Shown: piece by piece, positions 29,329-63,830 of the stretch
How the letters are laid out: each line of letters begins with the position of its first letter
Numbering within the stretch: the first letter of the stretch is position 1
From: Brachynemurus nebulosus
Lineage: Eukaryota > Arthropoda > Insecta > Neuroptera > Myrmeleontidae
Reading direction: 5' to 3'
Length of the DNA stretch: 64,000 nt
Assembly: GCA_035578155.1 (NCBI GenBank)
Contig: JAPWDM010000061.1
Coordinates: 246,001 to 310,000 of the forward strand
Program-made: the position numbers and the translations under genes
The notes under the pieces: model-generated
What the model saw: only the letters and a program-made list of their open reading frames with translations
The model's database searches: none
What the model was told of the DNA's origin: nothing

Positions 29329-29967
29329 CTAGTTCGCGGATCCATCGAAGCCTATAATTGTGTCATTCACGTATCTATACCAAAATTTTACATGTTGTTT
29401 GGTTAGTGTGTTGTTTATTATTACTTTCTCTAAGTTCGACATACAAATTTCGTCCAATAGAGGGCTCAGAGGTGATCCCACTGAAAGGCCACTTGTCTGT
29501 CGCAAGAATTTAGTGCCGAACTTAAAGTAGTTTTGTTTTAAAATTGTATTAAAAGTGTTTATTAACTCGGATTGTTTTAATGGATTATTTATCTTATTAT
29601 TTATTATTTCACTAATTAAATTTAGACATTCCTTGGCAGAAATGTTGGTGAACATACTACGCACGTCCAGGGAGGCCAATTTGTAGCGACCGGGAAAGGG
29701 AGTGTTATTTAACTGATTTACAAGTTGGAAGGAGTTTTTAATGCTGTGCTCGGAGGTGAACTGGGTTTCGGTTTTAAAAAGGGAGTTTAGGTGTTGTGAT
29801 AATTTATGTGATGGGCATCCAATATGAGAAGCTACTGGTCTGATTGGGTTGTCGATTTTGTGCGTTTTTACCAATCCATATAATCTAGGGGCTCTCGGGT
29901 TCATCTCCACCAAGAAATGTCTATTCCTATCAGTAAAGATACTTTTATTAATTAATTTCTCAAACAT
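29329..29967 (-). pseudogene. Penelope-like reverse transcriptase fragment
   Basis: The 212-codon open stretch has PRLYGLVKTHK, PIRPVAS, SLDVRSMFTNI, GLSVGSPLSPLL and FWYRYVNDTIIGF, in the order typical of Penelope RT. The catalytic aspartate pair, usually VDD, reads VND, so one metal-binding Asp is replaced. The frame closes soon after. The N-terminal fingers of RT are lost at the junction. Confidence 0.85.
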
Positions 29968-30540
29968 CGGTCAAACTGGCAGAAATTTTGAAACCTGGAG
30001 AGCAGAGCATTTCAGATCCTATAGAAATAAGAAATCCGACTCTGCTTTCGCAAGGTATTCAATTGACACTGGACACACACCAGAACGGAAAATTACCGTG
30101 TTACACGAGGCAAGCAAAGGACAGAAGTTAACCATCCTAGAAGCAATAGAAATAAATAAACATAACTCCGATCACCTTTTAAATGACTACACCAATATTT
30201 ACAGTTCAACTTTATTTTCAATATTATAATTTATTTAAACCTTTAAAATTGTATTTTGCTGTAATATTGTCTTTTTGTCAATTTCAATTCCAATATTTTG
30301 TCACGTGTTTGTTTGCCTTTTGTCACATATACTGTAATCTTGGTCATCTTGTTTTTCGGATTCTCCCACTACCTCCGACCCTTCCACTTCCACATCACAT
30401 ACCACTCCTCCTTATAGGAAGATAAAATTAGTATATAAGGCATGTATCGAATGTAATTTTTATTCTGTTTGAAAATAAACTAACGGTTCGAAACAATATT
30501 GTCATAATTTCAAAAATAAAAGTGGCATTTTGCAAAGTAT
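29968..30540 (+). pseudogene. Inverted second 3' fragment of the same Penelope-like family
   Basis: From IGQTGRNFETW onward the plus strand encodes the C-terminal part of the GIY-YIG domain without a stop until 30229, followed by the 3' tail to about 30540. It is the inverted counterpart of 28200-28740. The junction near 29967 joins it head-to-head with the RT fragment. Inverted partial copies are common for Penelope insertions. Confidence 0.8.
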
Positions 30541-35528: not shown

Positions 35529-35920
35529 ATATTTGGAAAATTTAACGAAAATCAAATTTATATCGGTACTGTTGGTTTTCAAAAAAAAAAAAAAAAAATA
35601 GAATTGTTCGTCCATTTTTACTGATTAATTTCATTGGATTTGTGCCGCCTATTTTGTGCATACGTAATTTGTTTTATTGAATTGGCTAGTCAAAATAAAA
35701 CATAGTGATATCTTGTTTCAGCTTTATTTTCAATTATATTGAAATTATTTCAGAATTTTCTTTCATAAAAATTATTTTACAACTTTTATATATATTTTTT
35801 TAAATATAAAGTTTTAGTACTCGTATCTTTAACACTCGTATAGTTTGAAACCATTTTCGTTCATTTTGCAATATTTTCGTAATTATTACAATTGTTTTGA
35901 GTGTTTAATTTTCTTTAAAT

Positions 35921-38900
35921 ATGGAACCCACAAGAAAATTAAAAATTTTGCTCAAAAAGAAAGAAACTCTATTTGCTAGAGTTCAACGACTACTTGAAGA
36001 TGGGAAAAGAATTGCTAACCAATTTAATTACGAAAATTTTCTTATTAGATATCAGTCATTGGAGGAAACAAAAACTGAATTTTTTTCCATTGTTGATCAA
36101 ATAAATGAACTTAGTATTTCACTCGATGAAAATTATGTGCCCGATTTTGCAGTTTTAGACAGTTTCGACGAAATATATTGCCACATTTTAAAAATTAAAA
36201 AAGACATTAATACCGAAACTCGTAAAACTTCTATACCAGAGGCTGTAAATGACGATGTGGTTGCTGGTCCAAGTAAATCGATGCCACGTCTGCCAAAAAT
36301 TTCTCTACCGCGTTTTTCTGGAAATTTACAGGATTGGCCAGTATTTTCGGAATGTTTCAGAAATCTCATTCACGAAAATCCCACACTTACGGACACTGAT
36401 CGTGTACATTACTTGATAGGTCAACTTGATGATAAAGCGCTTCGTATTTGTTCAGGTGTTCCACCTACCGGCCAAAATTACAGTTTTTTGTGGGAATCCT
36501 TAAATGAAAAATATAATGATGAGCGATTATTGGCTAATAGTTATCTCGATCAATTATTTGATTTCAAACCTGCTGCTAACCAAAGTGTTAATTCACTGAA
36601 TAATTTTTTATTAAAATTCGATGCATCGGTACGAGCTCTCAAAAAATTAAAAATTGAAAATCTTTGTGATTATATTTTCGCGTATTTAGCATTAAAGAAA
36701 CTAGATTCAGAAACTATTCGATTATTCGAAAATACACGTCGACAATCATCGTTACCGTCATATGACGACATAATTCAGTTTGTTTCAGAACAAGTCAAAA
36801 TTTGTATTAGATCTCCGATGTCTCAAAAATTGGTTACCTCTGTCGAAAAAAGTAAAGTTTCGCACACCTTTGTCAGTACTCAAAATCATTCTAATGGTAG
36901 TCATTGTTCAATTTGTAACTCAAATTCACACAGTATTTATAATTGTGGAAAATTTTCAGCTCTCAAGCCGTTGGATCGTTACAAATTAATTAAAGAAAAT
37001 AATCTGTGTATCAATTGTTTAGGTTCTCACAAAGTACTTGTTTGTAAAAGTAAAACTTCGTGTAAAAAATGTGGTAAAAAACATCACTCTCTACTGCATT
37101 TTTCAAATACTGAAAATATTTCAACAAATCCCATTCCTTCTTCCACAAAATCTCCTAGTTCATCGCCTAACAGTAAATCTGTAGGGGAAAATGTGGCAAA
37201 CTCGGACACAAAAATTTTTCATAGTTTGAGTTTGTGCTCCACTAATGAAACAACTCTGAAGAATTATAATTCAACTGTATTGTTATCTACCGCTATAGTA
37301 AATATTATTGATGAGCATAATAACATACACAAAGCTCGATTTTTATTGGATTCAGCCAGTCAACGGAATATTTTATCTTTTGGGTGTTGTAAAAAATTTA
37401 ATTTACGAATTCAAAAATGCTCAGCAACTATTCGTGGTATAGGTACTTCTACAAACCAAGTAAAAGGTCAAGTAAATTTAATTATTTCGTCTTGTTTCGA
37501 TCCGTCAAAACGCTATTCTTTAGATGCATTAGTTATAGAAAATATTACTGATCAGTTACCTCATTGTAAAATTCCTCTCGAGAAACTTACGTACCTTGAA
37601 AATTTACCGCTAGCCGATCACAGTTTTCACACTCCGGGAAATATTGACGGCATATTGGGGGGTGAGTTGTATCCCCATTTATTGGGTCATAATCGTATAA
37701 TGGCCTCACCGGACTTACCCGTTGCCATTGAAACCACTTTAGGTTATGTACTTTTAGGTAAAACTCCTGTAACACATAGCCAAGATATCGTAAATTCATT
37801 TTACACAGTCGTAGAACCGCATCTTGAAAATTTGGTCCAGAAGTTTTGGGAGCTTGAAGAGGTTCCGTCCGAATTAATTCAAGATCCAGATGAACTGAAA
37901 TGCGAAGAACTTTATGCTTCGACTTATAGCCGTCAAAATTCAGGGAGATATACTGTGTCACTACCGTTCAAGTCCGATCCCGCTAATCTTGGTAATTCGC
38001 ACGCGGTGGCACTTAGGCGATTCTTAAGTTTGGAACGAAAATTTAAACAAGTCCCAAAATATAAAGAACAATATGTTCAAATTTTTAATGAATATTTGGA
38101 AGCTGGTTACATTAGAAAAGTATCAAACAAATCTGTTTCTGAACCATCATATTTTATCCCACATCATGGAATATTTAAAGTTGACAGTGTTAGTACTCCT
38201 CTCAGAATTGTATTCGACGCAAGTGCTCGTTCTGATACTGGTTTTTCACTGAATGATTTGTTATATGCGGGTCCAAAATTGCAAACTGATGTCGTAAATA
38301 TTTTCTTGAATTTCCGCTTATTTTTAATTGCTATTACATCAGATATTAGACGCATGTATCTGCAAATTAATTTATGTGAGGAACACAGAAAATTTCAACA
38401 AATTTTATGGCGCTATTCAGAGACAGAACCGATATCGTCATACGAATTAACCACAGTTACTTTTGGCGTAAAATCCTCTCCTTTTCTTGCTCTTAGAACT
38501 GTACATCAACTTTCACATGACGAAGAAAATGATTTTCCATTAGCTTCGGAACATGCTCGAAAGTTTATGTACGTTGATGATTACTTGGCAAGTGTTAGTA
38601 ACATACATATTGCGAAACAGATTTACCAGGAAATGGTTAATATGTTTCAAAGAGGTGGTTTCGATCTAGTTAAGTGGTCAACTAATTCACATGAATTGTT
38701 AGATTTTATACCTAAGGAAAACTGTACTCCCGAAATAGTTAATTTTGAAAAAGATTTTTTGAAAGTTTTAGGTATGCAATGGCACCCTGAAACTGATTAT
38801 TTGTCATTTAAATTAAACATAGACGAAACCAGAGAATGTACCAAAAGAAACATTTTATCTCTCGCAGCTCGTTTTTTTGATCCTCTGGGACTTGTTGCAC

Positions 38901-41104
38901 CAGTTATTGTAAAATTGAAATTGTTCATAAAACATTTGTGGTCACTGCATTTAGACTGGGATGCCACTCCACCAGAAAATTTCATTAAAATCTGGAAACA
39001 ATTCGAAAATGAAATTCCATTGCTAAAAAATTTTAAAATTCCTAGACATTTAGGCTTACTCGAAAATACTAACTCCATTATTTTAATTGGTTTTGCTGAC
39101 GCGAGCACTACCTCATATGGTGCTGTAGTTTATCTCCGCTCGTCAACTGAAACCAATATAACCTCAAATTTAGTTTGTGCAAAATCTAAAATTGCACCAT
39201 TAAAAACCATTTCAGTACCTCGCCTTGAATTATGTGCTGCTCTATTATTGGCTAAATTATTATCTTTTGTACATCAAATATTTTCTCGCATAAAAATAGA
39301 TAAAATTTACGCTCTTTCGGATTCAACTGTAACGCTCAGTTGGATTAATGATTCACCGCACAAGTGGAAAACATTTGTATCGAACAGGGTCACAAAAATT
39401 CAAAACTTAATTCCGTCGTCTAATTGGCACTACATCAATACCAAGTTAAATATCGCTGATGCAGTATCTCGTGGTTTATCCCCATCACAGTTTTTGTCTC
39501 TCTCTGATTGGATTTCTGGACCAACTTGGCTACTTGATGCGGAAACTGATTGGCCTATTCAGTCATTGCCATTAGAAAACGTCACGGAATTAGAGAAAAA
39601 GGAAATTACATTAATTGTTACCAATCGCGCACCTAATCCCTTGTATAATTTAATTGATCGATGCTCAAATTGGAAAAAATTATTACGTTCGACTGTGTAT
39701 GTACTACGTTTTACAAAAATGCTTCCTCTGCAAACCAATATTACCGCTACCGACTTAAATTTTGCCGAACGAATCATTTTAAAAATCGTACAAAATGCTC
39801 ATTTTGAAACCGAAATCAGATCACTAAATAATAATCAACAATGCTCCCCTTATTTGCGTAAACTTCGCCCTTTCTTAAAAGATGGTATACTTCGTGTTGG
39901 TGGGCGACTTGCAAATTCAAATTTGAATTTTGACACCCAGCATCCTATTTTACTCCCCAAAAGGGATCCTGTTGTAAATTTATTAATTGACTATCATCAT
40001 CAAACTAACTTTCACACAGGTCCTAATTTGGTACTGGCTTTACTTCGACAACGGTATTGGATACTTTCAGCGCGAACTGTAGTTCGAAATCGTATTTCGA
40101 AGTGTAATTTTTGTTTTCGTATGAATCCAAAACCACAATATCCATTGATGGGTGACTTGCCTGCTTATAGAGTGCAACAAGTAAAACCATTTTTCTCTAC
40201 GGGAGTAGATTTTGCTGGGCCAATAAAAATTTTACTTAACCGATTTCGTGGTACTCGTTCACAAAAGGCGTATATATGTTTATTTATATGCCTTGGTATT
40301 AAAGCAGTCCATTTAGAACTCGTCTCAGATCTATCAACTCCAAATTTCTTACAGGCTTTTAAACGATTTTTAGCGCGCAGAGGGCTATGTTCTACTTTAG
40401 TGTCCGATGCCGGTACTACCTTTATCGGAGCAAAAACAGAACTAAGTGAACTATATCAATTGTTGGCTTCCTCTGATTTTCAAAATCAGCTTGGAAACGA
40501 ACTCAGTCACAGAGGCGTTACGTGGAAAATTAATCCTCCTAGTGCGCCACATATGGGTGGCATCTGGGAGGCAAACATAAAATGTGTAAAAACACATCTT
40601 CACAAAGTAATTGGGGAACAACTACTTACTTATGAAGAAATGAATACCCTTCTAATACAAATCGAGTGTTTGCTAAATTCCCGACCTTTATGTGCACTGA
40701 GTTCCGATCCAGCTGACCCCATTGCTCTTACACCCGCTCATTTTCTCACACTGACACCGCTAAATTGGCTGCCTGCTGAGGATCTGTCTGGTACTAAAAT
40801 TAATCGTTTAACTAGATACCAACTTATTGATAAAATGGTACAAGATTACTGGAAACGATGGCATATCGAATATTTAACGTCGTTACAAGTTCGTGAACGT
40901 TGGACCAGTTCACCCGAATCTATTGAGATCGGAAAGATTGTCATTTTACAACAACCAAACACTCCACCTTTACAATGGCCACTTGGTCGAATAACTGAAA
41001 CTTTCCCCGGTAAAGATGGGGTGGTCAGAGTGGTATCTGTAAAAACCAAAAATGGAATTTTTAAACGCCCGGTCGTAAAAGTTTGTCCACTACCACTGCA
41101 ATAA
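35921..41104 (+). CDS. BEL/Pao Gag-Pol polyprotein, 1727 aa, intact
   Basis: A single uninterrupted ORF holds all expected domains. A coiled N-terminus is followed by a DUF1759 Gag region (about residues 124-290) and Cys/His knuckles (about 328-342 and 364-395). The aspartic protease has LLDSAS near 476, where Ala replaces the usual third residue Gly or Thr. The reverse transcriptase has FDASAR near 765 and catalytic YVDD at 884-887, and is followed by the Pao-type linker. RNase H has GFADAS near 1057. The integrase has an HHCC region (about 1357-1395) and a D-D-E triad at 1430, 1496 and 1550. A C-terminal DUF5641-type segment includes WKRWHIEYL. It encodes the machinery to make particles, copy its RNA and insert the DNA. 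The length and completeness suggest a potentially active copy. Confidence 0.97.
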   Translation: MEPTRKLKILLKKKETLFARVQRLLEDGKRIANQFNYENFLIRYQSLEETKTEFFSIVDQINELSISLDENYVPDFAVLDSFDEIYCHILKIKKDINTETRKTSIPEAVNDDVVAGPSKSMPRLPKISLPRFSGNLQDWPVFSECFRNLIHENPTLTDTDRVHYLIGQLDDKALRICSGVPPTGQNYSFLWESLNEKYNDERLLANSYLDQLFDFKPAANQSVNSLNNFLLKFDASVRALKKLKIENLCDYIFAYLALKKLDSETIRLFENTRRQSSLPSYDDIIQFVSEQVKICIRSPMSQKLVTSVEKSKVSHTFVSTQNHSNGSHCSICNSNSHSIYNCGKFSALKPLDRYKLIKENNLCINCLGSHKVLVCKSKTSCKKCGKKHHSLLHFSNTENISTNPIPSSTKSPSSSPNSKSVGENVANSDTKIFHSLSLCSTNETTLKNYNSTVLLSTAIVNIIDEHNNIHKARFLLDSASQRNILSFGCCKKFNLRIQKCSATIRGIGTSTNQVKGQVNLIISSCFDPSKRYSLDALVIENITDQLPHCKIPLEKLTYLENLPLADHSFHTPGNIDGILGGELYPHLLGHNRIMASPDLPVAIETTLGYVLLGKTPVTHSQDIVNSFYTVVEPHLENLVQKFWELEEVPSELIQDPDELKCEELYASTYSRQNSGRYTVSLPFKSDPANLGNSHAVALRRFLSLERKFKQVPKYKEQYVQIFNEYLEAGYIRKVSNKSVSEPSYFIPHHGIFKVDSVSTPLRIVFDASARSDTGFSLNDLLYAGPKLQTDVVNIFLNFRLFLIAITSDIRRMYLQINLCEEHRKFQQILWRYSETEPISSYELTTVTFGVKSSPFLALRTVHQLSHDEENDFPLASEHARKFMYVDDYLASVSNIHIAKQIYQEMVNMFQRGGFDLVKWSTNSHELLDFIPKENCTPEIVNFEKDFLKVLGMQWHPETDYLSFKLNIDETRECTKRNILSLAARFFDPLGLVAPVIVKLKLFIKHLWSLHLDWDATPPENFIKIWKQFENEIPLLKNFKIPRHLGLLENTNSIILIGFADASTTSYGAVVYLRSSTETNITSNLVCAKSKIAPLKTISVPRLELCAALLLAKLLSFVHQIFSRIKIDKIYALSDSTVTLSWINDSPHKWKTFVSNRVTKIQNLIPSSNWHYINTKLNIADAVSRGLSPSQFLSLSDWISGPTWLLDAETDWPIQSLPLENVTELEKKEITLIVTNRAPNPLYNLIDRCSNWKKLLRSTVYVLRFTKMLPLQTNITATDLNFAERIILKIVQNAHFETEIRSLNNNQQCSPYLRKLRPFLKDGILRVGGRLANSNLNFDTQHPILLPKRDPVVNLLIDYHHQTNFHTGPNLVLALLRQRYWILSARTVVRNRISKCNFCFRMNPKPQYPLMGDLPAYRVQQVKPFFSTGVDFAGPIKILLNRFRGTRSQKAYICLFICLGIKAVHLELVSDLSTPNFLQAFKRFLARRGLCSTLVSDAGTTFIGAKTELSELYQLLASSDFQNQLGNELSHRGVTWKINPPSAPHMGGIWEANIKCVKTHLHKVIGEQLLTYEEMNTLLIQIECLLNSRPLCALSSDPADPIALTPAHFLTLTPLNWLPAEDLSGTKINRLTRYQLIDKMVQDYWKRWHIEYLTSLQVRERWTSSPESIEIGKIVILQQPNTPPLQWPLGRITETFPGKDGVVRVVSVKTKNGIFKRPVVKVCPLPLQ

Positions 41105-44768: not shown

Positions 44769-44776
44769 TATTATAA

Positions 44777-45520
44777 GTAGATAGGCTAGGAGAGATCTGT
44801 GACACCGTAAAACTAACCAACTTGAACCCTTTTGCCAATGTTTGAAATCGTGTAACTTTACGGTACTAGACATTCCGAACTGATCAGTCATCAAACTGTA
44901 TCGATGTGCAAACCTTGACCTTTGACCCGGCACGTACTGAGTACATGTATTTAAAATTTGTTGTTGACATATGACCCCAGCACTCGCTCATACTGCTGGC
45001 CTTGAAACTCCAAAGACATGAGTCATCACTTCGACAAAATAAATTCAAGTTAACCCATTATGCATCATCACTATTTTCGTCACAATTTAGTTTTGTGTTA
45101 ACCCATTACCCGCCATAGTTTTTGAATGCAAACCTAACGCATGCGCAGACTGAATTTAAGTACATGACGCATGCGCAGACTGAATTTAAGGTTACAATTT
45201 GATAGATGGGGTACACTACCGCGTCAAAAATGTGGGGTTACCCTAACTCGGGGGTGGCCACAAACTTTTGACGCCGTACTGTACTTAAATTTTTGGTACA
45301 CTGCCGTGTCAAAAGTGCGGGCCCCCCTGAGCAAAAAGGTATCCGATCATTTGTTGAAGCGCACTGTACGTGCAAACCTTAACCCCAACACGCGCTTACC
45401 TTAATTGCGTCATTTTAAACGAACTACCAAGTCAAAAATGTGGGGAATACCCTAACCCACGGGGAGGCCGCTAAATTTTGTGGGGGCACTGTACCAAGCG
45501 CTACCGCAAAACTAATTTCA
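44777..45520. repeat. Diverged left terminal region with subterminal repeats
   Basis: This part aligns with 54080-55040 inverted but with frequent substitutions and indels, unlike the inner arm. It holds two tandem copies of GACGCATGCGCAGACTGAAT (about 45136 and 45166) and repeated phrases AAAATGTGGGG, CCCTAAC and TACTGTACTTAAATTT. Such clustered repeats near the ends would suit binding by a transposase or replication protein. Confidence 0.75.
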
Positions 45521-46690
45521 GACTCCAGGGTCCAGATGTCTGACCGCTACTGTACTGCCGGAAATTTGGGTGTCAACTGTAACTCAGGGGTTTTTGTGTA
45601 TATTTAACCTTGGAAAATTCCAGGAATTTTTATCAGTTTTAACATAAACAAACAACTAATAATTAAATGTTTGTTTTAGCTGAATTATGATCGTAAGACT
45701 CATATAAGGAGTTTTTTTGGTATAAGAAAGATGACGTCATGGAATATTAATGAGTTAAAAAAATTGTTTAGTAAAAAATATTACCCATTGTAGGCCTCAA
45801 GCAAGAAATTATTTTTATCAGTTTTTAATACTTTAACATTTAACCTACAGTGACCAATTTTTTAGTTAACTAACAAAAGTTCTTGAAATTTTAACAAGTT
45901 ACAAAAAATATTACTTCTTATGGTGCACAACATTTTTGAATTTGACTGTAGCACAAAACTGTTTCTATATCAAACGAAAATTATCTGAAATAATTCAGTA
46001 TGTACATATGTATAGACTCTGTATATTAAAAATATTTTATGTATACACTCTGTATATTGAGAATAAGAAAGAAAATTTGTATATAATTTTAATTTTTATG
46101 AATACTAGTAAACGAATTGTATAGCCATTTATGAATAAGTATTAAATCTAATTATAAAATAATTTATAAATATTGCAAAAAATTTGTTTAATCAGCAAAA
46201 TCAATGTATATCATTTTAATACTGATACATATTTATATTAGGGTATAATAGTATTGTATTTAACATTTTTAAACAGAATAAAAGTTCAATTTTTGGTTTT
46301 AAATTACTATAAGTTAAACACGTCGCTTAATATAAAAATGATAACAGCATTGAGTTTTACTAAATTTTTAAGTCTGTAAAATCAAAATTTTTTATAGACA
46401 CATAGAACATTTTGAATTTGCTACTTTATCATTAACATACAAATAATATCATGTATATATAACGGGTGTATATTTAGTATTTTTAATAAATATTTTAGTA
46501 TACAGGGTGTATCATGAAATATGCTTTTCAATTAGAATAATAAATTTCATAAGATTTTTGTTAATACTCTTATAGGTTAACGAAAGAAACTTTTTGCTGT
46601 AAAAAATTAGGGGAATGCAGGGTAATAATTAAATAAAACGCACATATTTTTTTTTTAAATTTTATTTATAGAATATGTATACAAAAAATT
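45521..46690. other. Left-arm AT-rich non-coding segment
   Basis: Between the diverged terminus and the 161-aa gene; nearly identical to the mirrored 52920-54080. Several small ORFs have no recognisable content. A stretch of about 400 bp near 46440-46640 contains TACAGGGTGTATCATG, which occurs in many insect repeats. Confidence 0.5.
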
Positions 46691-46721
46691 AAATTGCTTA
46701 AATCTATATATTACTTAAAAT

Positions 46722-47207
46722 CTATTTATTTTCCATATAAAAATTTTTTAAAAGAATACAATTTTCTAATGAACAAATTTTATCTGAATGAAGCATACAG
46801 CGTCTTGAATAATATTCATCTCGCAGAATGGAAATCTTCGGTACATCAAATATTTCTTCCAAATTCAAAATCCACGGCTGGTTTTCGGTACCATCAAACA
46901 AACTTGATGTCCATTTCTTCTTTTCAACACCCTTGACGTATATAACATCATACTTCTTTAATATAGGTTTCAATATGGTATGAAGTTTTTTGTATGGAAT
47001 AAATCCATACGACCAAGGTATCCCATGCCAATTTCGGTAAAGCCAACTGGCTACTCGTTGATATTTCTTCGGCAACTCGTTGAAATCAAACGGTGCGTCG
47101 AATATAAGATGTAATATATCATCCGAATTTTCTGCAGCAATACCAACTTCTTTAAAATAAAATTCGTTGTTAGCTCCTTGATAGCCTTGTATGTCAAGAA
47201 ACGCCAT
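46722..47207 (-). CDS. 161-aa protein, intact left-arm copy; possible nuclease-like fold
   Basis: The start ATG at 47207 gives MAFLDIQGY. Visible motifs are D5-x-Q7 in a likely first beta strand, W59-H61-G62 with WSYGFIPY (65-72), IYVKGVEKKKW (89-99), LNLEEIF (114-120), and a Cys/His cluster (C137, H140, C145, C150). From memory, this pattern resembles small uncharacterised proteins that are common in insect genomes. The D-x-Q ... NLE layout recalls DEDD-type 3'-5' exonuclease folds, but this is a weak inference. AATAAA overlaps the stop codon. Confidence 0.75.
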   Translation of the reverse strand: MAFLDIQGYQGANNEFYFKEVGIAAENSDDILHLIFDAPFDFNELPKKYQRVASWLYRNWHGIPWSYGFIPYKKLHTILKPILKKYDVIYVKGVEKKKWTSSLFDGTENQPWILNLEEIFDVPKISILRDEYYSRRCMLHSDKICSLENCILLKNFYMENK

Positions 47208-47226
47208 TTTTTACCGCCACCATAGA

Positions 47227-47261
47227 ACTGAATTTATTCACACAATCCACAACTTTATATA
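47227..47261 (-). promoter_or_regulatory. TATA box plus TCAGT initiator, left 161-aa gene
   Basis: Read on the minus strand, TATATAAAG (47261-47253) is followed about 32 bases later by TTCAGTT (TCAGT at 47231-47227), the arthropod initiator consensus, 20 bases before the ATG. This spacing is that of a canonical RNA polymerase II core promoter. Confidence 0.75.
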
Positions 47262-47370
47262 GAATAATTAAAAGTGGTGGGGGTAGTTAGTTAATTTGTG
47301 GAACGTATTCGAAAATGGCTATTAATAGCTATTGCTAGTTTACCATCAAATTACAAACTGTTAATAATAT

Positions 47371-47547
47371 TTAGCACATTTGTGAGTACCAGGTTCTTTT
47401 CACTTTAAGACCTAGTGATTTAAGGAATGCTAAATTTTCAGGTGAAATGTGTTGTTGCTCAAAAGTTTTACGTTTAATGATTTTAGGTTTCGAAAGTCCT
47501 TTGCTAGGTTCTCTAGCGGTGTACTGCGCTGAATTGTAAATTAACAT
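47371..47547 (-). CDS. Small basic protein, about 58 aa (left arm copy)
   Basis: The frame is open from further upstream, but the first ATG is at 47547, giving 58 codons. The protein is basic, with SKPKIIKRKTFEQQHI and then SPENLAFLKSLGLKVKRTW. It is not recognised. The frame remains open without an ATG for over 100 bp upstream of this start, so the ORF could be a last exon. The same reading exists in the right arm. It lies between the zinc-finger gene and the 161-aa gene in the same direction. Confidence 0.55.
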   Translation of the reverse strand: MLIYNSAQYTAREPSKGLSKPKIIKRKTFEQQHISPENLAFLKSLGLKVKRTWYSQMC

Positions 47548-47719
47548 GGTTCCAAAATGTAATTGTTTTACCACGAAAGTATAATTTTCAACGAAAGAGA
47601 TGTTAACTCTTTGACAACCACCGGTAAATAGATAATATTTTATGTAAGTTCAACTATTTTATACCCTTCAACCATGATAAGGTGTATAAGCTGGAGTATA
47701 ACTCAGCAAATTATATAGC

Positions 47720-47940
47720 GGTGGTGACGTAACACACAAATGCGGTGGTTGTGTTGCGGTTGTGGCGGTGGCGGTGTTTGTGTGGCGGTTGTGTGGCGGT
47801 GGCGGTGGTGTTTGTGTGGCGGTGGCGGTGGGGTTTATGTGGTGGCGGCGGTGGTGTTTGTGTGGCGGTGGTATTTGTATGGTGGTTTCGGTGGTTGTGT
47901 GGTGGTTGTGAGGGTGGCGGGGTAGCAGCGGTGTTTGCGG
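47720..47940. repeat. GGCGGT/GTGTTT compound microsatellite, left arm
   Basis: Imperfect 9 to 15-bp units built of GGTGGCGGT and GTTTGTGTGG lie between the zinc-finger gene and the small basic gene. The ORFs read through it on both strands are low-complexity artefacts. Mirrors 51665-51885. Confidence 0.9.
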
Positions 47941-48044
47941 CTGACGTGCAGAACTTTATCATTAATTCAATCGAAGCAGCAATTTACTGTAGACAATAAA
48001 TCGGTGGTGACATCTCGCGGTGTTTGTTGAACGCAATATCTAAA

Positions 48045-48911
48045 TTAATCATCATCATAATCGCTAGTATCTTCTTTATCAGTTTCATCCAGATAATCAC
48101 CTAGTGGCTCAATAACATCAGCCTTTTGAAGTTCACGAAGTATAGAGAATATTTCTTGACCGACAGTAGTTTCTCTTAAAGCATCTAACTCTTCGATTAA
48201 AGCTTCACTATCGTCAACGTTAAACAATATGTTTTTATTTTCCTCTATACTCCGAATAATATTGAGTATTTTTTCACCAGTCTCTGAAGTCTCGTATAAA
48301 CGTCGTAATTCATCTATTAAAGTATTAGGATTATGCCAGTATTTTATTTTTTTCGATTGCCCATTAGCATTTTCCGAGTCGTTGTATTTGATACGCTTAG
48401 CAAGTAGCTCTTGGTCCGTTGAATTGACTGGACGTTTTATTGCTATTCGTTCATTAGAATCCTCACCTTTATTTTGAGTTTCTTTGATTAATAAAATATC
48501 TAAAAGGGTTTGCAAAGCTGTAGTTAACTTGGGAATGATAACAGTTCCACTATCAGAAGTAGTTAAAACCCTGTTATTAGACTCATCGCTGGGTGTGTAA
48601 ACATTATTTTGATTTCTTAAATTATTAAATTTAGTTTGAATTGCTTTTGATGCAGCTTTAATTATTTGTTCAAGTGGATTGACCCTTTCTTCAACTTTAT
48701 TGTTTAGAAATTCATCATCAACATCATTCCTCCCGGTATCATAACTAGATAAGTCATCAGCCGTGTCTAATGTTTGTCTTTTTAGCGGATCAAGAGAGTA
48801 ACTATTTTCAAACCTTTTTGGTGAAAATTCCCGCATATGTGTATTTCTTATATGACGTGAAAGAGAATCTTTCCGCGAGAAGCTTTTATAGCACCGCGTA
48901 CACTCGAACAT
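48045..48911 (-). CDS. C2H2 zinc-finger protein, 288 aa (left arm copy)
   Basis: The N-terminus holds one classical C2H2 finger: C4, C7, H20, H25, with the usual F11 and L17 core positions. A basic stretch (about 169-192, with KRIKY and SKKIKYW) could be a nuclear signal. The C-terminal half has two similar helical repeats of about 30 residues (198-229 and 238-266), each with the pattern LI(D/E)EL...L.ET...G..I..I(I/L)R. The tail (271-288) is strongly acidic. It is read outward from the centre. DNA binding is inferred from the finger; the rest is not recognised. Translation equals that of the right-arm copy. Confidence 0.85.
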   Translation of the reverse strand: MFECTRCYKSFSRKDSLSRHIRNTHMREFSPKRFENSYSLDPLKRQTLDTADDLSSYDTGRNDVDDEFLNNKVEERVNPLEQIIKAASKAIQTKFNNLRNQNNVYTPSDESNNRVLTTSDSGTVIIPKLTTALQTLLDILLIKETQNKGEDSNERIAIKRPVNSTDQELLAKRIKYNDSENANGQSKKIKYWHNPNTLIDELRRLYETSETGEKILNIIRSIEENKNILFNVDDSEALIEELDALRETTVGQEIFSILRELQKADVIEPLGDYLDETDKEDTSDYDDD

Positions 48912-48974
48912 TATAATAGATGTGTAAAGCGCAACTAGTCTTACAAGATTAATTCAGAATTGTGTTAGCGATTA

Positions 48975-48982
48975 CTTATATA
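48975..48982 (-). promoter_or_regulatory. TATA box, left zinc-finger gene
   Basis: CTTATATA on the plus strand, i.e. TATATAAG read toward the gene, 64 bp upstream of the ATG at 48911. Mirrors 50623-50630. Confidence 0.6.
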
Positions 48983-48983
48983 C

Positions 48984-49072
48984 TCCACCACCACCACCAC
49001 CACCGCCGCCACCACCACCGGCACCACCACCACCACCACCGCCACCACCACCACCACCGCCGCCGAAACCAC
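48984..49072. repeat. CCACCA/CCGCCA microsatellite upstream of the left zinc-finger gene
   Basis: About 30 triplets of CCA/CCG, a strong GC island in AT-rich DNA. On the gene's sense strand it reads GGT/GGC, with many runs of paired G. Mirrors 50532-50622. Confidence 0.9.
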
Positions 49073-49089
49073 CACATCTGTGTTGCTCA

Positions 49090-49777
49090 TTTTACTCCAT
49101 GAAGTAGCTGTTGACATCCGGCTTACACAGTTTACCCCCATTACGCTCTTTCGGTTTGGAAATTAGTTCAGAAAAATGAATGAAGAGCTATATGCAAGTG
49201 TCAGGTGACTCAACACCAACATTAAAATACTTGCTCCTGAATATAGGCAATTACATTGCGTTGCCAACTGGGTTCGTACCTACTGAGAGTCTTATCATAA
49301 TTCAAGATATAATTTGGGAGGTTCTAGTGTGTTGTAAAATAAGAACAATATAAGAATTTATACCAAAAATAATTTATTTTTTAATGAAATATACGTTTAC
49401 AATATTAAAATTAAAAAGTAAATCAATTCATTTTCATATCTGACAGTTACCTTAATCTTACATCTAACATCATACATGTGATAGCTATTTACTAAATTCC
49501 ACATTATGTAAAAAACCACTAGAATAAGTTCCTTTATATGTAATAAAATATTGTCCTGTACGTAAACATTGAATGGTCTGCTCATCCAAATCCGCGAATC
49601 GTTTTGGAAGGAACACTTGAGCATCTGCAAGTTACACCGCAACCGCTGGTCTAAATTAAGTTACTCTAAAGCAACCACACATTCATATGATCAGTGTTTA
49701 TACACCACAACCAATGGAAAATATCAAATAAACATTAGCATTTATTTAGTAATGAGGTATAACGTGTATTTTGAGTA
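49090..49777 (-). other. Left-arm central segment with an uncertain 81-codon ORF
   Basis: The minus-strand frame 49397-49642 (mirrored at 49963-50208 plus) has 81 codons with a hydrophobic second half (VVFYIMWNLVNSY and YFLILIL). A different frame overlaps it on the other strand. It may be a small membrane protein, or chance. Both arms preserve it, but they preserve everything here. Confidence 0.3.
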
Positions 49778-49827
49778 ACAGTGGAATTGACCAATACCTA
49801 TTAATCAGTATTAAAGTTTTTGTTGAA
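49778..49827. other. 50-bp spacer at the centre of the palindrome
   Basis: The only non-palindromic part of the centre. The inverted arms reach TTTTGAGTA at 49777 and TACTCAAAA at 49828. Within the last 25 bp of each arm there are two or three mismatches (for example AACGTG against the mirrored AATGTA). Confidence 0.9.
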
Positions 49828-50531
49828 TACTCAAAATATACATTATACCTCATTACTAAATAAATGTTAATGTTTATTTGATATTTTCCATTGGTTGTGG
49901 TGTATAAACACTGATCATATGAATGTGTGGTTGCTTTAGAGTAACTTAATTTAGACCAGCGGTTGCGGTGTAACTTGCAGATGCTCAAGTGTTCCTTCCA
50001 AAACGATTCGCGGATTTGGATGAGCAGACCATTCAATGTTTACGTACAGGACAATATTTTATTACATATAAAGGAACTTATTCTAGTGGTTTTTTACATA
50101 ATGTGGAATTTAGTAAATAGCTATCACATGTATGATGTTAGATGTAAGATTAAGGTAACTGTCAGATATGAAAATGAATTGATTTACTTTTTAATTTTAA
50201 TATTGTAAACGTATATTTCATTAAAAAATAAATTATTTTTGGTATAAATTCTTATATTGTTCTTATTTTACAACACACTAGAACCTCCCAAATTATATCT
50301 TGAATTATGATAAGACTCTCAGTAGGTACGAACCCAGTTGGCAACGCAATGTAATTGCCTATATTCAGGAGCAAGTATTTTAATGTTGGTGTTGAGTCAC
50401 CTGACACTTGCATATAGCTCTTCATTCATTTTTCTGAACTAATTTCCAAACCGAAAGAGCGTAATGGGGGTAAACTGTGTAAGCCGGATGTCAACAGCTA
50501 CTTCATGGAGTAAAATGAGCAACACAGATGT

Positions 50532-50622
50532 GGTGGTTTCGGCGGCGGTGGTGGTGGTGGTGGCGGTGGTGGTGGTGGTGGTGCCGGTGGTGGTGGCGGC
50601 GGTGGTGGTGGTGGTGGTGGAG
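50532..50622. repeat. GGTGGT/GGCGGT microsatellite upstream of the right zinc-finger gene
   Basis: GGT/GGC triplets end directly at the TATA box of the zinc-finger gene. The purine-rich strand could form two-tier G-quadruplexes; this is inference. Confidence 0.9.
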
Positions 50623-50630
50623 TATATAAG
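50623..50630 (+). promoter_or_regulatory. TATA box, right zinc-finger gene
   Basis: TATATAAG in the right arm, following the GGT-rich tract and preceding the ATG at 50694. An initiator motif is not clear. Confidence 0.6.
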
Positions 50631-50693
50631 TAATCGCTAACACAATTCTGAATTAATCTTGTAAGACTAGTTGCGCTTTACACATCTATTATA

Positions 50694-51560
50694 ATGTTCG
50701 AGTGTACGCGGTGCTATAAAAGCTTCTCGCGGAAAGATTCTCTTTCACGTCATATAAGAAATACACATATGCGGGAATTTTCACCAAAAAGGTTTGAAAA
50801 TAGTTACTCTCTTGATCCGCTAAAAAGACAAACATTAGACACGGCTGATGACTTATCTAGTTATGATACCGGGAGGAATGATGTTGATGATGAATTTCTA
50901 AACAATAAAGTTGAAGAAAGGGTCAATCCACTTGAACAAATAATTAAAGCTGCATCAAAAGCAATTCAAACTAAATTTAATAATTTAAGAAATCAAAATA
51001 ATGTTTACACACCCAGCGATGAGTCTAATAACAGGGTTTTAACTACTTCTGATAGTGGAACTGTTATCATTCCCAAGTTAACTACAGCTTTGCAAACCCT
51101 TTTAGATATTTTATTAATCAAAGAAACTCAAAATAAAGGTGAGGATTCTAATGAACGAATAGCAATAAAACGTCCAGTCAATTCAACGGACCAAGAGCTA
51201 CTTGCTAAGCGTATCAAATACAACGACTCGGAAAATGCTAATGGGCAATCGAAAAAAATAAAATACTGGCATAATCCTAATACTTTAATAGATGAATTAC
51301 GACGTTTATACGAGACTTCAGAGACTGGTGAAAAAATACTCAATATTATTCGGAGTATAGAGGAAAATAAAAACATATTGTTTAACGTTGACGATAGTGA
51401 AGCTTTAATCGAAGAGTTAGATGCTTTAAGAGAAACTACTGTCGGTCAAGAAATATTCTCTATACTTCGTGAACTTCAAAAGGCTGATGTTATTGAGCCA
51501 CTAGGTGATTATCTGGATGAAACTGATAAAGAAGATACTAGCGATTATGATGATGATTAA
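50694..51560 (+). CDS. C2H2 zinc-finger protein, 288 aa (right arm copy)
   Basis: Same protein as the left-arm gene at 48045-48911, with no amino-acid difference in translation. The start ATG lies 64 bp after a TATATAAG box (50623-50630), itself directly downstream of a GGT-rich microsatellite. Preservation of two identical full-length ORFs in inverted arms implies recent selection or gene conversion. A single finger with an acidic tail could be a transcription factor or a terminus-binding protein of the element; this is inference. Confidence 0.85.
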   Translation: MFECTRCYKSFSRKDSLSRHIRNTHMREFSPKRFENSYSLDPLKRQTLDTADDLSSYDTGRNDVDDEFLNNKVEERVNPLEQIIKAASKAIQTKFNNLRNQNNVYTPSDESNNRVLTTSDSGTVIIPKLTTALQTLLDILLIKETQNKGEDSNERIAIKRPVNSTDQELLAKRIKYNDSENANGQSKKIKYWHNPNTLIDELRRLYETSETGEKILNIIRSIEENKNILFNVDDSEALIEELDALRETTVGQEIFSILRELQKADVIEPLGDYLDETDKEDTSDYDDD

Positions 51561-51664
51561 TTTAGATATTGCGTTCAACAAACACCGCGAGATGTCACCA
51601 CCGATTTATTGTCTACAGTAAATTGCTGCTTCGATTGAATTAATGATAAAGTTCTGCACGTCAG

Positions 51665-51885
51665 CCGCAAACACCGCTGCTACCCCGCCACCCTCACAAC
51701 CACCACACAACCACCGAAACCACCATACAAATACCACCGCCACACAAACACCACCGCCGCCACCACATAAACCCCACCGCCACCGCCACACAAACACCAC
51801 CGCCACCGCCACACAACCGCCACACAAACACCGCCACCGCCACAACCGCAACACAACCACCGCATTTGTGTGTTACGTCACCACC
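51665..51885. repeat. ACCGCC/AAACAC compound microsatellite, right arm
   Basis: Inverted copy of 47720-47940 with apparently the same unit order, which is notable because such arrays usually change length quickly. Confidence 0.9.
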
Positions 51886-52057
51886 GCTATATAATTTGCT
51901 GAGTTATACTCCAGCTTATACACCTTATCATGGTTGAAGGGTATAAAATAGTTGAACTTACATAAAATATTATCTATTTACCGGTGGTTGTCAAAGAGTT
52001 AACATCTCTTTCGTTGAAAATTATACTTTCGTGGTAAAACAATTACATTTTGGAACC

Positions 52058-52234
52058 ATGTTAATTTACAATTCAGCGCAGTACACCGCTAGAGAACCTA
52101 GCAAAGGACTTTCGAAACCTAAAATCATTAAACGTAAAACTTTTGAGCAACAACACATTTCACCTGAAAATTTAGCATTCCTTAAATCACTAGGTCTTAA
52201 AGTGAAAAGAACCTGGTACTCACAAATGTGCTAA
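52058..52234 (+). CDS. Small basic protein, about 58 aa (right arm copy)
   Basis: Same as 47371-47547, no amino-acid difference seen. The first ATG is at 52058. The frame is open back to about 51956 without another ATG, and that upstream part also reads like protein (FVENYTFVVKQLHF), so an upstream exon is possible. Function unknown. The LxFLKSLGLKV pattern near the C-terminus is the best search handle. Confidence 0.55.
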   Translation: MLIYNSAQYTAREPSKGLSKPKIIKRKTFEQQHISPENLAFLKSLGLKVKRTWYSQMC

Positions 52235-52343
52235 ATATTATTAACAGTTTGTAATTTGATGGTAAACTAGCAATAGCTATTAATAGCCATTTTCGAATAC
52301 GTTCCACAAATTAACTAACTACCCCCACCACTTTTAATTATTC

Positions 52344-52379
52344 TATATAAAGTTGTGGATTGTGTGAATAAAATTCAGT
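52344..52379 (+). promoter_or_regulatory. TATA box plus TCAGT initiator, right 161-aa gene
   Basis: TATATAAAG (52344-52352) and TCAGT (52375-52379), spaced 33 bases to the initiator A, one base more than in the left arm. The ATG follows at 52400. Confidence 0.75.
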
Positions 52380-52399
52380 TCTATGGTGGCGGTAAAAAA

Positions 52400-52886
52400 A
52401 TGGCGTTTCTTGACATACAAGGCTATCAAGGAGCTAACAACGAATTTTATTTTTAAAGAAGTTGGTATTGCTGCAGAAAATTCGGATGATATATTACATC
52501 TTATATTCGACGCACCGTTTGATTTCAACGAGTTGCCGAAGAAATATCAACGAGTAGCCAGTTGGCTTTACCGAAATTGGCATGGGATACCTTGGTCGTA
52601 TGGATTTATTCCATACAAAAAACTTCATACCATATTGAAACCTATATTAAAGAAGTATGATGTTATATACGTCAAGGGTGTTGAAAAGAAGAAATGGACA
52701 TCAAGTTTGTTTGATGGTACCGAAAACCAGCCGTGGATTTTGAATTTGGAAGAAATATTTGATGTACCGAAGATTTCCATTCTGCGAGATGAATATTATT
52801 CAAGACGCTGTATGCTTCATTCAGATAAAATTTGTTCATTAGAAAATTGTATTCTTTTAAAAAATTTTTATATGGAAAATAAATAG
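52400..52886 (+). pseudogene. 161-aa protein gene, frameshifted right-arm copy
   Basis: The ATG at 52400 starts the same MAFLDIQGY as the left copy. One extra T in the run near 52446-52455 (ATTTTATTTTTAAAG against ATTTTATTTTAAAG) makes the frame stop after about 18 codons. The remaining codons stay intact in a shifted frame and are otherwise the same as the left arm. An upstream GTG/ATG-led frame that bypasses the N-terminus gives a different start and is probably not used. A neighbouring poly-A run is also one base longer. Confidence 0.8.
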
Positions 52887-52919
52887 ATTTTAAGTAATAT
52901 ATAGATTTAAGCAATTTAA

Positions 52920-54079
52920 TTTTTTGTATACATATTCTATAAATAAAATTTAAAAAAAAAATATGTGCGTTTTATTTAATTATTACCCTGCATTCCCCTA
53001 ATTTTTTACAGCAAAAAGTTTCTTTCGTTAACCTATAAGAGTATTAACAAAAATCTTATGAAATTTATTATTCTAATTGAAAAGCATATTTCATGATACA
53101 CCCTGTATACTAAAATATTTATTAAAAATACTAAATATACACCCGTTATATATACATGATATTATTTGTATGTTAATGATAAAGTAGCAAATTCAAAATG
53201 TTCTATGTGTCTATAAAAAATTTTGATTTTACAGACTTAAAAATTTAGTAAAACTCAATGCTGTTATCATTTTTATATTAAGCGACGTGTTTAACTTATA
53301 GTAATTTAAAACCAAAAATTGAACTTTTATTCTGTTTAAAAATGTTAAATACAATACTATTATACCCTAATATAAATATGTATCAGTATTAAAATGATAT
53401 ACATTGATTTTGCTGATTAAACAAATTTTTTGCAATATTTATAAATTATTTTATAATTAGATTTAATACTTATTCATAAATGGCTATACAATTCGTTTAC
53501 TAGTATTCATAAAAATTAAAATTATATACAAATTTTCTTTCTTATTCTCAATATACAGAGTGTATACATAAAATATTTTTAATATACAGAGTCTATACAT
53601 ATGTACATACTGAATTATTTCAGATAATTTTCGTTTGATATAGAAACAGTTTTGTGCTACAGTCAAATTCAAAAATGTTGTGCACCATAAGAAGTAATAT
53701 TTTTTGTAACTTGTTAAAATTTCAAGAACTTTTGTTAGTTAACTAAAAAATTGGTCACTGTAGGTTAAATGTTAAAGTATTAAAACTGATAAAAATAATT
53801 TCTTGCTTGAGGCCTACAATGGGTAATATTTTTTACTAAACAATTTTTTAACTCATTAATATTCCATGACGTCATCTTTCTTATACCAAAAAAACTCCTT
53901 ATATGAGTCTTACGATCATAATTCAGCTAAAACAAACATTTAATTATTAGTTGTTTGTTTATGTTAAAACTGATAAAAATTCCTGGAATTTTCCAAGGTT
54001 AAATATACACAAAAACCCCTGAGTTACAGTTGACACCCAAATTTCCGGCAGTACAGTAGCGGTCAGACATCTGGACCCT
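52920..54079. other. Right-arm AT-rich non-coding segment
   Basis: Mirror of 45521-46690; the same reading applies. It serves as a conserved non-coding spacer between the last gene and the terminus. Confidence 0.5.
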
Positions 54080-55040
54080 GGAGTCTAAAGTTAGTTTTGC
54101 GGTAGCGCTTGGTACAGTGCCCCCACAAAATTTAGCGGCCTCCCCGTGGGTTAGGGTATTCCCCACATTTTTGACTTGGTAGTTCGTTTAAGATGACGTA
54201 ATTAAGGCAAGCGCGTGTTGGGGTCAAGGTTTGCACGTACAGTACGCTTCAAAAAGTGATCGGATACCTTTTTGGTCAGGGGGGCCCGCACTTTTGACAC
54301 GGCAGTGTACCAAAAATTTAAGTACAGTACGTCGTCAAAAGTTTGGGACCACCCCCGAGTTAGGGTATTCCCCACATTTTTTGACGTGATAGTTCGTTTA
54401 AGATGACGTAATTAAGGCAAGCGCGTGTTGGGGCCAAGGTTTGCACGTACAGTACGTTTCAAAAAGTGATCGGATACCTTTTTTGGCTAGGGGGGTCCAC
54501 ACTTTTGACACGGTAGTGTACCAAAAATTTAAGTACAGTACGGTGTCAAAAGTTTGGGACCACCCCCGAGTTAGGGTATTCCCCACATTTTGACGCGGTA
54601 GTGTACCCCATCTATCAAATTGTGGCCTAAAATTCAGTCTGCGCATGCGTCGTGTACTTAAATTCAGTCTGCGCATGCGTTAGGTTTGCATTTCAAAAAC
54701 TATGGTGAGTAATGGGTTAACACAAAACCAAATTGTGACGAAAATAGTGATGATGCATAATGGGTTAACATAAATTAATTTGGTTGCTGGTAATGACTCA
54801 TCTCTTACGAATTTCAAGGCCAACAGTATGAGCGAGTGTGGGGTCAAATGTCAACAACAAATTTTGATACATGTACTTGGTACGTGCCGGGTCAAAGGTT
54901 AAGGTTTGCACATCGATACAGTTTGATGACTCATCAGTTCGGAATGTCTAGTACCGTAAAGTTACACGATTTCAAACATTGGCAAAAGGGTTCAAGTTGG
55001 TTAGTTTTACGGTGTCACAGATCTCTCCTAGCCTATCTAC
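54080..55040. repeat. Diverged right terminal region, with a 210-bp tandem duplication
   Basis: The block starting AGTTCGTTTAAGATGACGTA occurs at 54181 and again at 54391, a period of exactly 210 bp, whereas the left arm has only one such block (about 45370-45420). This accounts for nearly all of the 212-bp length difference between the arms. The tandem GCGCATGCGT repeats lie at about 54645 and 54672. Confidence 0.85.
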
Positions 55041-55048
55041 TATTATAA

Positions 55049-63372: not shown

Positions 63373-63405
63373 TTAAAAATCACAAAGTGATTGAAAAAAT
63401 TATCC

Positions 63406-63477
63406 GGATCGGCCGGGAATCGAACCCAGGATTTCCTGGTAACTAGCCAGGTGTGCTGACCTCTACACCAACGATCC
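63406..63477 (-). tRNA. tRNA-like cloverleaf, Thr(AGT)-like, in a satellite unit
   Basis: The minus strand folds as a 72-nt tRNA: acceptor GGATCGT with CCGATCC (6 of 7 pairs), D stem GTGT/GCAC, anticodon stem CCTGG/CCAGG (5 of 5), loop CTAGTTA (anticodon AGT), variable AAATC, T stem CTGGG/CCCGG and loop TTCGATT. The B box GGTTCGATTCC is perfect. Base 37 is T rather than a purine, and it lies in a repeat, so a repeat-borne tRNA relic or SINE head is more likely than a decoding tRNA. Confidence 0.5.
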
Positions 63478-63758: not shown

Positions 63759-63830
63759 GGGTGGGCCGGGAATCGAACCCAGGATTTACTGGTAACTAAC
63801 CAGGTGTGCTGACCTCTACACCAACGATCT
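63759..63830 (-). tRNA. Degenerate second copy of the tRNA-like segment
   Basis: Same position in the next 353-bp unit, also 72 nt. The B box and anticodon loop (TTAGTTA) are kept, but the acceptor halves AGATCGT and CCCACCC hardly pair and one anticodon-stem pair is lost. This copy is not a functional tRNA. Confidence 0.5.

What the first reader, a model, noticed from the sequence alone, without database searches (positions are those of the whole stretch)
44769..55048. A 10.26-kb palindromic, gene-bearing mobile element with no visible transposase
Seen: exact inverted ends (GTAGATAGGCTAGGAGAGAT), a perfect 8-bp flanking duplication TATTATAA, 5-kb arms around a 50-bp spacer, and three outward-reading genes per arm (C2H2 zinc finger, small basic protein, 161-aa protein). 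Known: 8-bp duplications occur with hAT, P, Merlin and some MULE transposases, but none of these carries this gene set, and long-TIR foldback elements are usually gene-poor. Inference: a new class of long-inverted-repeat element, or a head-to-head dimer of a 5-kb linear replicon (virus-like) inserted by a transposase-like reaction. It is the best candidate in the window for an undescribed system.
Basis: partly seen in the sequence, partly recalled or inferred. Interest (0 to 1): 0.92.

Follow-up and report, generated by a model that had tools for sequence, protein, structure and literature searches.

The report
Palindromic non-autonomous Polinton element
The palindrome is one copy of a large family of shortened, gene-carrying relatives of Polinton/Maverick virus-like transposons; they share the ends of full-size Polintons in the same genome, lack their replication and integration genes, and sometimes turn into near-perfect palindromes.

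Summary
The structure is real, but the 8-bp duplication was misread. In 20 of 20 elements examined (window included) the ends are 5'-AG...CT-3' and the target duplication is exactly 6 bp: Polinton/Maverick hallmarks. The 19-bp end occurs 525+533 times in the host assembly (control 1+1). Two 16-17 kb elements with these ends carry a Polinton gene set: integrase, double-jelly-roll capsid, A32-type ATPase, PLA2-like protein, probable PolB. All 126 scored integrase copies have intact frames. The window's 161-aa protein is 97% identical to a gene next to the Polinton TIR. The ~10-kb elements lack nine Polinton genes in 20 of 20; they keep a small Polinton-like protein and a zinc-finger gene, and the 19 others have TIRs of 3.3-4.8 kb. 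The window's full palindrome is best explained by fold-back at a short inverted repeat that non-palindromic relatives still carry. Two other loci share its junction; one has a different centre. Best reading: a non-autonomous, possibly satellite-like Polinton lineage mobilised in trans; a new variant of a known kind. Trans-mobilisation and zinc-finger function are inferred.

The parts
44770..44775 (.). left 6-bp target-site duplication ATTATA
   Evidence: the 8-bp TATTATAA is this 6-mer plus a T before and an A after it
55042..55047 (.). right 6-bp target-site duplication ATTATA
44776..55041 (.). whole element, ends 5'-AGTAGATAGG...CCTATCTACT-3'
44776..45519 (+). outer left TIR segment; first ~108 bp identical to the right end, remainder 6.2% substituted; its nearest relative among the fetched elements differs from that of the right end
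54087..55041 (-). outer right TIR segment with an extra ~210-bp subterminal repeat copy
45520..49737 (+). left inner arm; no substitution against the right arm, five 1-bp homopolymer indels
49868..54086 (-). right inner arm (read as the original arm: colinear with non-palindromic relatives)
49726..49879 (.). palindrome centre: imperfect inverted repeat also present in non-palindromic relatives (proposed fold-back seed); homology to them breaks at 49726
46722..47207 (-). 161-aa gene, left copy, intact; 97% identical to a Polinton gene
52400..52886 (+). 161-aa gene, right copy, with a 1-bp homopolymer frameshift near its N-terminus
47371..47547 (-). 58-aa basic protein gene, left copy
52058..52234 (+). 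58-aa basic protein gene, right copy; a homologue (53% identity) lies between the capsid gene and a 302-aa gene of the two Polintons read
47580..47678 (-). stretch matching residues 247-279 of a 302-aa Polinton protein (67%), left copy
51927..52025 (+). stretch matching residues 247-279 of a 302-aa Polinton protein (67%), right copy
48045..48911 (-). 288-aa C2H2 zinc-finger protein gene, left copy
50694..51560 (+). 288-aa C2H2 zinc-finger protein gene, right copy
49488..49655 (-). C-terminal remnant (aa 70-125) of the 125-aa A-type gene, left copy, with an internal stop
49950..50117 (+). C-terminal remnant (aa 70-125) of the 125-aa A-type gene, right copy, with an internal stop
50530..50629 (+). 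putative promoter of the zinc-finger gene: GGTGG array followed by a TATATAA box (50623)
51736..51894 (+). putative promoter of the 58-aa gene: CCACC array followed by TATATAA (51888)
52344..52350 (+). TATATAA box upstream of the 161-aa gene

Best explanation
The element is one of several hundred copies carrying Polinton/Maverick-type ends in this genome. It belongs to a ~10-kb non-autonomous class derived from the left end of a Polinton (order TIR - 161-aa - 58-aa - relic of a 302-aa gene, capsid gene missing), and holds a zinc-finger gene not found in the two Polintons read. Shown: 6-bp duplications, shared ends, the derived gene order, absence of Polinton core genes, and a palindrome junction at an inverted repeat that relatives also have. 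Inferred: Polinton-encoded polymerase and integrase act in trans on the shared ends, and the linear intermediate is copied end to end, keeping the two TIRs of each copy nearly identical. During such synthesis (or gap repair) a strand folded back at a ~48-bp imperfect inverted repeat in the centre and copied the right arm outward, replacing the left half, then joined a divergent left TIR by homologous recombination. The product then integrated, or the change occurred in situ between existing duplications; the data do not separate these two.
For: Ends and duplication: 20 of 20 elements with exact 6-bp duplication and AG/CT ends, plus 2 of 2 Polintons. Abundance: 525+533 end sites, control 1+1; of 42 paired ends among the first 100 listed sites, 32 are 8.4-12.0 kb and 7 are 16.2-16.85 kb. 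Helper candidates: integrase rve 3.7e-15, DJR capsid 3.4e-122, Pox_A32 3.5e-10, PLA2-like 9.5e-13; 126 of 126 scored integrase copies (of 3567 candidates) have an intact frame. Derivation: 161-aa 97% identical; 58-aa homologue in both Polintons; 58-aa and 302-relic in 40 of 40 half-elements, and no PolB, integrase, ATPase, protease, PLA2, capsid, 337-, 143- or 132-aa hit at 1e-6 in 20 of 20 elements. Palindrome: C116 carries the inverted repeat (48-bp arms, 95.8%) and 8 of 8 fetched relatives with this region lose homology at 49726; 3 loci match across the junction and 37 other places stop at it. TIRs: the own other arm is the nearest relative in 16 of 20, median difference 0.09% versus 1.44%.
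Against: No functional test of trans-mobilisation. Bases ~21-115 of the ends diverge strongly between the two Polintons read and these elements, so those two may not be the exact helpers. The polymerase ORF was recognised by no library; its label rests on motifs recalled from memory. In 4 of 20 elements the own other arm is not nearest: C106 (misaligned by an internal shift), C58:26.63M, C74 and the window. TIR identity could also reflect recent insertion or gene conversion. Of the first 100 listed end sites 16 are unpaired and were not examined.
Confidence: 0.86

Rival explanations
1. A long-TIR foldback element of a DDE cut-and-paste superfamily with 8-bp duplications (hAT, P/Galileo, Merlin, MULE), non-autonomous.
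For: Exact 8-bp repeat in the window; long, internally repetitive TIRs as in Galileo (PMC4168063, passages).
Against: The 8-bp reading holds in 6 of 20 copies, the 6-bp reading with AG/CT ends in 20 of 20. Two full-size elements with the same ends encode a retroviral-type integrase and, in the one scanned with Pfam, a DJR capsid.
Confidence: 0.02
2. A head-to-head dimer of a 5-kb virus-like linear replicon.
For: Near-perfect arms, outward-reading compact genes. 16 of the first 100 zero-mismatch end sites are unpaired and were not examined.
Against: The 19 sibling elements have centre segments outside TIRs of 3.3-4.8 kb. Non-palindromic relatives hold the inverted repeat at the junction. The 40 end hits scored pair into 20 two-ended elements.
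Confidence: 0.04
3. The inner arms are identical because of ongoing gene conversion within an old palindrome, rather than recent fold-back synthesis.
For: Sharp drop from 6.2% divergence to none at 45519; palindromes are known to convert (recalled).
Against: Divergence is confined to the subterminal-repeat zone, and the centre keeps a mismatched inverted repeat that relatives also have. A palindrome with a different centre exists.
Confidence: 0.25
4. The ~10-kb elements are decaying deletion derivatives with no selected function, amplified passively.
For: Relic fragments of Polinton genes. ZnF dN/dS is 0.82 among close pairs and 0.63 between types; the 58-aa protein gives 0.90 at intermediate distance.
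Against: ZnF match without a stop in 129 of 135 best-scoring A-type places (biased to the best) and a ZnF frame of at least 280 aa in 17 of 20 elements. 58-aa found in 40 of 40 half-elements, one of them partial, though only ~53% identical to the Polinton version. 161-aa dN/dS 0.13-0.24.
Confidence: 0.35

Closest known systems
Polinton/Maverick (adintovirus-like) elements
   Same: 6-bp target duplications, AG...CT ends, TIRs, a shared end-proximal gene and a small gene of the capsid region (PMC8097293 and PMC4028283, passages)
   Different: ~9-11 kb instead of 16-17 kb; no integrase, polymerase, ATPase, protease or capsid gene; TIRs of 3.3-4.8 kb instead of ~1 kb; a C2H2 zinc-finger gene absent from the two Polintons read
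Galileo / Foldback elements of Drosophila
   Same: very long, internally repetitive TIRs that can extend inward and recruit formerly internal sequence (PMC4168063, passages)
   Different: 7-bp (three copies 8-bp) duplications there, P-superfamily transposase; here 6 bp, and the arms carry intact genes
Virophages and virus satellites
   Same: smaller element that appears to need a larger virus-like one (from listings and recall)
   Different: no capsid gene found; dependence not tested; the helper would itself be a Polinton
Fold-back (hairpin-primed) inverted duplications in yeast and cancer (PMC10622511, PMC7467729; listing and start of abstract only)
   Same: inverted duplication seeded at a short inverted repeat or hairpin
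   Different: here in a mobile element, closed by recombination in its TIR (inferred)

Membership tests
Polinton/Maverick | 6-bp target-site duplication | tested here: met
   20 of 20 elements, 2 of 2 Polintons
Polinton/Maverick | 5'-AG...CT-3' ends with TIRs | tested here: met
   vertebrate end motifs in PMC8097293 (passages)
Polinton/Maverick | own integrase, protein-primed PolB, ATPase, protease, capsid genes | tested here: not met
   0 of 20 elements including the window; hence filed as a non-autonomous derivative, not as an autonomous Polinton
Polinton/Maverick (the 16-17 kb elements) | integrase, DJR capsid, ATPase | tested here: met
   first element; second element's proteins 97-100% identical
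Polinton/Maverick (the 16-17 kb elements) | protein-primed PolB and cysteine protease | tested here: inconclusive
   1177-aa ORF unrecognised by libraries, labelled from recalled motifs; 141-aa ORF weak hit E 0.021
hAT / P / Merlin / MULE | 8-bp (or 9-bp) target-site duplication | tested here: not met
   8-bp reading in 6 of 20 only, no repeat longer than 8 in the 20 printed
hAT / P / Merlin / MULE | cognate transposase in a full-length relative | tested here: not met
   the two full-length relatives read encode an rve integrase instead; other relatives not read
Virus satellite | multiplication depends on a helper | not testable with these tools
   shared ends and missing core genes only
Virus satellite | own conserved genes distinct from the helper's | tested here: inconclusive
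   ZnF and 125-aa genes not found in either Polinton by tblastn, but a weak C-terminal resemblance of ZnF to their 337-aa protein; selection signal mixed
Galileo/Foldback | 7-bp (sometimes 8-bp) duplication | tested here: not met

The most novel reading that the evidence does not exclude
These are true satellites of an animal Polinton virus: a long-lived lineage with at least two zinc-finger types that keeps its own regulatory genes, takes fresh end sequences from its helper by recombination, outnumbers it, and whose end-to-end replication repeatedly extends the TIRs until whole elements become near-perfect palindromes.
Probability: 0.45. Interest if true: 0.82.

Novelty: new variant of a known kind. 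Interest (0 to 1): 0.63.

Why it matters
No listed title or abstract start in the paper searches made here described non-autonomous Polintons that carry their own genes; the listed papers were mostly not read. A genome with at least 126 intact Polinton integrase frames beside a ~10-kb derivative class that is commoner in the sample of paired ends (32 against 7 of 42) would make three questions testable in one animal: whether animal Polintons are still active, whether they have parasites of their own, and how their terminal repeats are kept identical. The recurrent palindromes would give a natural record of fold-back synthesis at known hairpins.

Tried and rejected
Homologues of the 161-aa, 288-aa and 58-aa proteins in the 5.8-billion protein set: none at E <= 0.001. 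IMG/VR: none for the three proteins, for the terminal 20-mer or for the Polinton capsid protein. Single-sequence structure predictions were poor (pLDDT 46 and 40); the PDB fold search on the first gave nothing at E <= 0.001; not used. A first arm-to-arm comparison was spoiled by off-register tandem repeats and replaced by an alignment, in which C106 is still misaligned. ZnF against the Polinton 337-aa protein: pairwise 16 residues, profile match prob 55%, E 1.2e-4 over 50 columns: suggestive, not relied on. 125-aa protein: no Pfam family below E 0.1. Whole-genome searches with the 161-aa protein and the 58-aa protein and the empty-site search with joined host flanks did not complete. Rejected: 8-bp superfamilies, 5-kb dimer, simple missing-adapter read artefact (flanks and outer TIRs differ, centre has a mismatched stem).
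Full report
OBSERVATION. The element spans 44776-55041. Aligned to each other, the outermost ~108 bp of the arms are identical; from there to 45519 there are 39 substitutions in 631 aligned sites (6.2%); 45520-49737 shows no substitution and five 1-bp indels, all in homopolymers; and the ~39 bp before the loop carry three mismatches. The 288-aa zinc-finger ORF is intact in both arms and exceeds the longest ORF in 500 simulated sequences (158 aa). The right-arm 161-aa ORF has a 1-bp frameshift in a homopolymer run. A TATATAA box lies 71, 170 and 56 bp upstream of the three start codons, and GGTGG/CCACC arrays precede the first two.

FAMILY. The host assembly has 960 Mb in 138 contigs. The terminal 124 bp gave 40 scored hits out of 1251 candidates; they pair into 20 elements, the window's included. 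The other 19 were fetched as halves. In the 19 the main inverted arms are 97-100% identical and reach 3.3-4.8 kb, with shifts in three (C126, C106, C1:86.13M); the window's reach ~5 kb with a less similar outer part. The 8-bp duplication holds in 6 of 20, whereas a 6-bp duplication with AG...CT ends is exact in 20 of 20. The 19-bp end with up to 2 mismatches occurs at 525 forward and 533 reverse sites against 1 and 1 for the reversed control. Among the first 100 listed sites, 84 form 42 pairs and 16 stay unpaired; sizes are 32 of 8.4-12.0 kb, 7 of 16.2-16.85 kb, one of 13.1 kb, and two of 4.0 and 7.1 kb.

FULL-SIZE RELATIVES. Two of the 16-17 kb elements were read in halves. Both have the same first 20 bases, 6-bp duplications and ~1-kb TIRs. 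In the first, Pfam finds an rve integrase (with a chromodomain match just under its cut-off), a double-jelly-roll capsid domain, a Pox_A32-type ATPase and a PLA2-like domain. Its 1177-aa ORF looks like a family-B polymerase by motifs recalled from memory (DVNNLYG, NNAVFGKTMEN, YTDTDS), but no library recognised it. A 141-aa ORF has only a weak match to a viral cysteine protease (E 0.021). The second element's proteins are 97-100% identical to the first's. Integrase copies: 126 scored of 3567 candidates, 126 of 126 with an intact 315-aa frame. This matches published Maverick/Polinton features (passages of PMC8097293, and PMC4028283).

DERIVATION. The window's 161-aa protein is 97% identical to the gene beside the TIR at the capsid end of the Polinton (called left here). 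The 58-aa protein matches, at 53%, a small gene lying between the capsid gene and a 302-aa gene in both Polintons; the zinc-finger and 125-aa proteins have no match there at 1e-3. Mapping 12 Polinton and 4 satellite proteins on the 40 half-elements at 1e-6 found no PolB, integrase, ATPase, protease, PLA2, capsid, 337-, 143- or 132-aa gene in 20 of 20. It found the 58-aa gene (one copy partial) and a C-terminal relic of the 302-aa gene in 40 of 40, and the 161-aa gene whole or in part in 40 of 40. Nine elements (A type, window included) carry the 125-aa gene or its remnant; eleven (B type) carry fragments of a 296-aa Polinton gene and a second zinc-finger type, 56-57% identical to the window's in the two aligned. 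The order TIR-161-58-relic is the Polinton's left end without the capsid gene. The mixed divergence (97% next to 53%) suggests that the ends were exchanged with Polintons after the lineage split; that is inference. Against close kinship of the exact ends, bases ~21-115 diverge strongly between these elements and the two Polintons.

PALINDROME. In the non-palindromic copy C116 the sequence matching the window's centre runs straight across it and contains a 48-bp inverted repeat at 95.8% identity with a ~50-bp loop; C119 has it at 91.7%. All 8 fetched relatives with this region lose homology at 49726. A 171-bp query over the junction (40 candidates scored of 696) matched through at 3 loci (window, C17:6.19M, C58:23.75M) and stopped at the junction in 37 other places. 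C17 has arms of at least 5356 bp at 99.9% and C58 arms of about 5.3 kb at ~99.4-99.5% (the stretches fetched did not reach the exact ends). Both lack a 352-bp deletion (size) that the window shares with the non-palindromic copy C95:12.28M, so the junction arose at least twice or was passed on by recombination. C95:11.74M is inverted around a different, 373-bp centre, C1:13.17M (B type) has 4836-bp identical arms, and C80:2.83M has a close inverted ZnF pair (not fetched). Among the fetched elements the window's left outer TIR is nearest to C1:79.35M (94.9%) and its right to C95:35.46M (97.0%); in most of the others the two ends agree. This points to recombination in the left TIR when the palindrome was closed.

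TERMINAL REPEATS. Over the first 2300 bp, the two arms of one element are each other's nearest relative in 16 of 20; median difference 0.09% against 1.44% to the nearest other element. The four exceptions are C106 (misaligned by a shift), C58:26.63M, C74 and the window. This fits copying of both ends in each round (as in protein-primed linear genomes, recalled), recent insertion, or conversion.

SELECTION. 161-aa dN/dS is 0.24 (dS under 0.05) and 0.13 (dS 0.05-0.2) over 13 intact copies; ZnF 0.82, 0.35 and 0.63 by rising distance class over 20 copies from 17 elements; 58-aa 0.19, 0.90 and 0.62 over 40; 125-aa 0.74 and 0.23 over 7 (pairs are not independent). Only the 161-aa result is clear. 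Of 135 best-scoring A-type ZnF matches (of 2943 candidates; the window counts twice) 129 have no stop, a sample biased to good copies.

VERDICT. A non-autonomous, gene-bearing Polinton derivative with giant TIRs, in a palindromic form. Family placement is firm; trans-mobilisation by Polintons is likely; satellite status is open. The listings of searches showed no title or abstract start on gene-bearing non-autonomous Polintons; a passage of PMC4028283 says that Tlr elements were once suggested to be a non-autonomous Polinton derivative.

Noticed in passing
window 35909-41104 (+): Long open frame (1731 aa) of a Bel/Pao retrotransposon with Peptidase_A17, RVT_1 and integrase zinc-binding matches.
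   Followed up: partly
window 29329-29970 (-) and 1911-2423 (-): Reverse-transcriptase fragments: an RVT_1 piece and an RT RNase H piece.
   Followed up: partly
window 63405-63477 and 63766-63823 (-): Two tRNA matches, the second only just above the gathering score.
   Followed up: no
G000 genome: 126 scored Polinton integrase copies, 98-100% identical and all intact, pointing to recent Polinton activity.
   Followed up: partly
C58:26.63M and C74:50.81M: One arm of each differs at no aligned site over the first 2300 bp, so the two copies look like very recent sisters.
   Followed up: no
20 insertion sites: T before and A after the 6-bp duplication in 6 of 20 sites, perhaps a mild T-N6-A target preference.
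   Followed up: no
C1:74958898-74962873: A 4-kb pair of the same ends, possibly a miniature form; sequence not obtained.
   Followed up: no
B-type elements, e.g. C71, C106 and C1:13.17M: Near the inner TIR boundary a coding-like tandem repeat (HSGSKM... on one strand, THFAPGV... on the other) is open on both strands.
   Followed up: no
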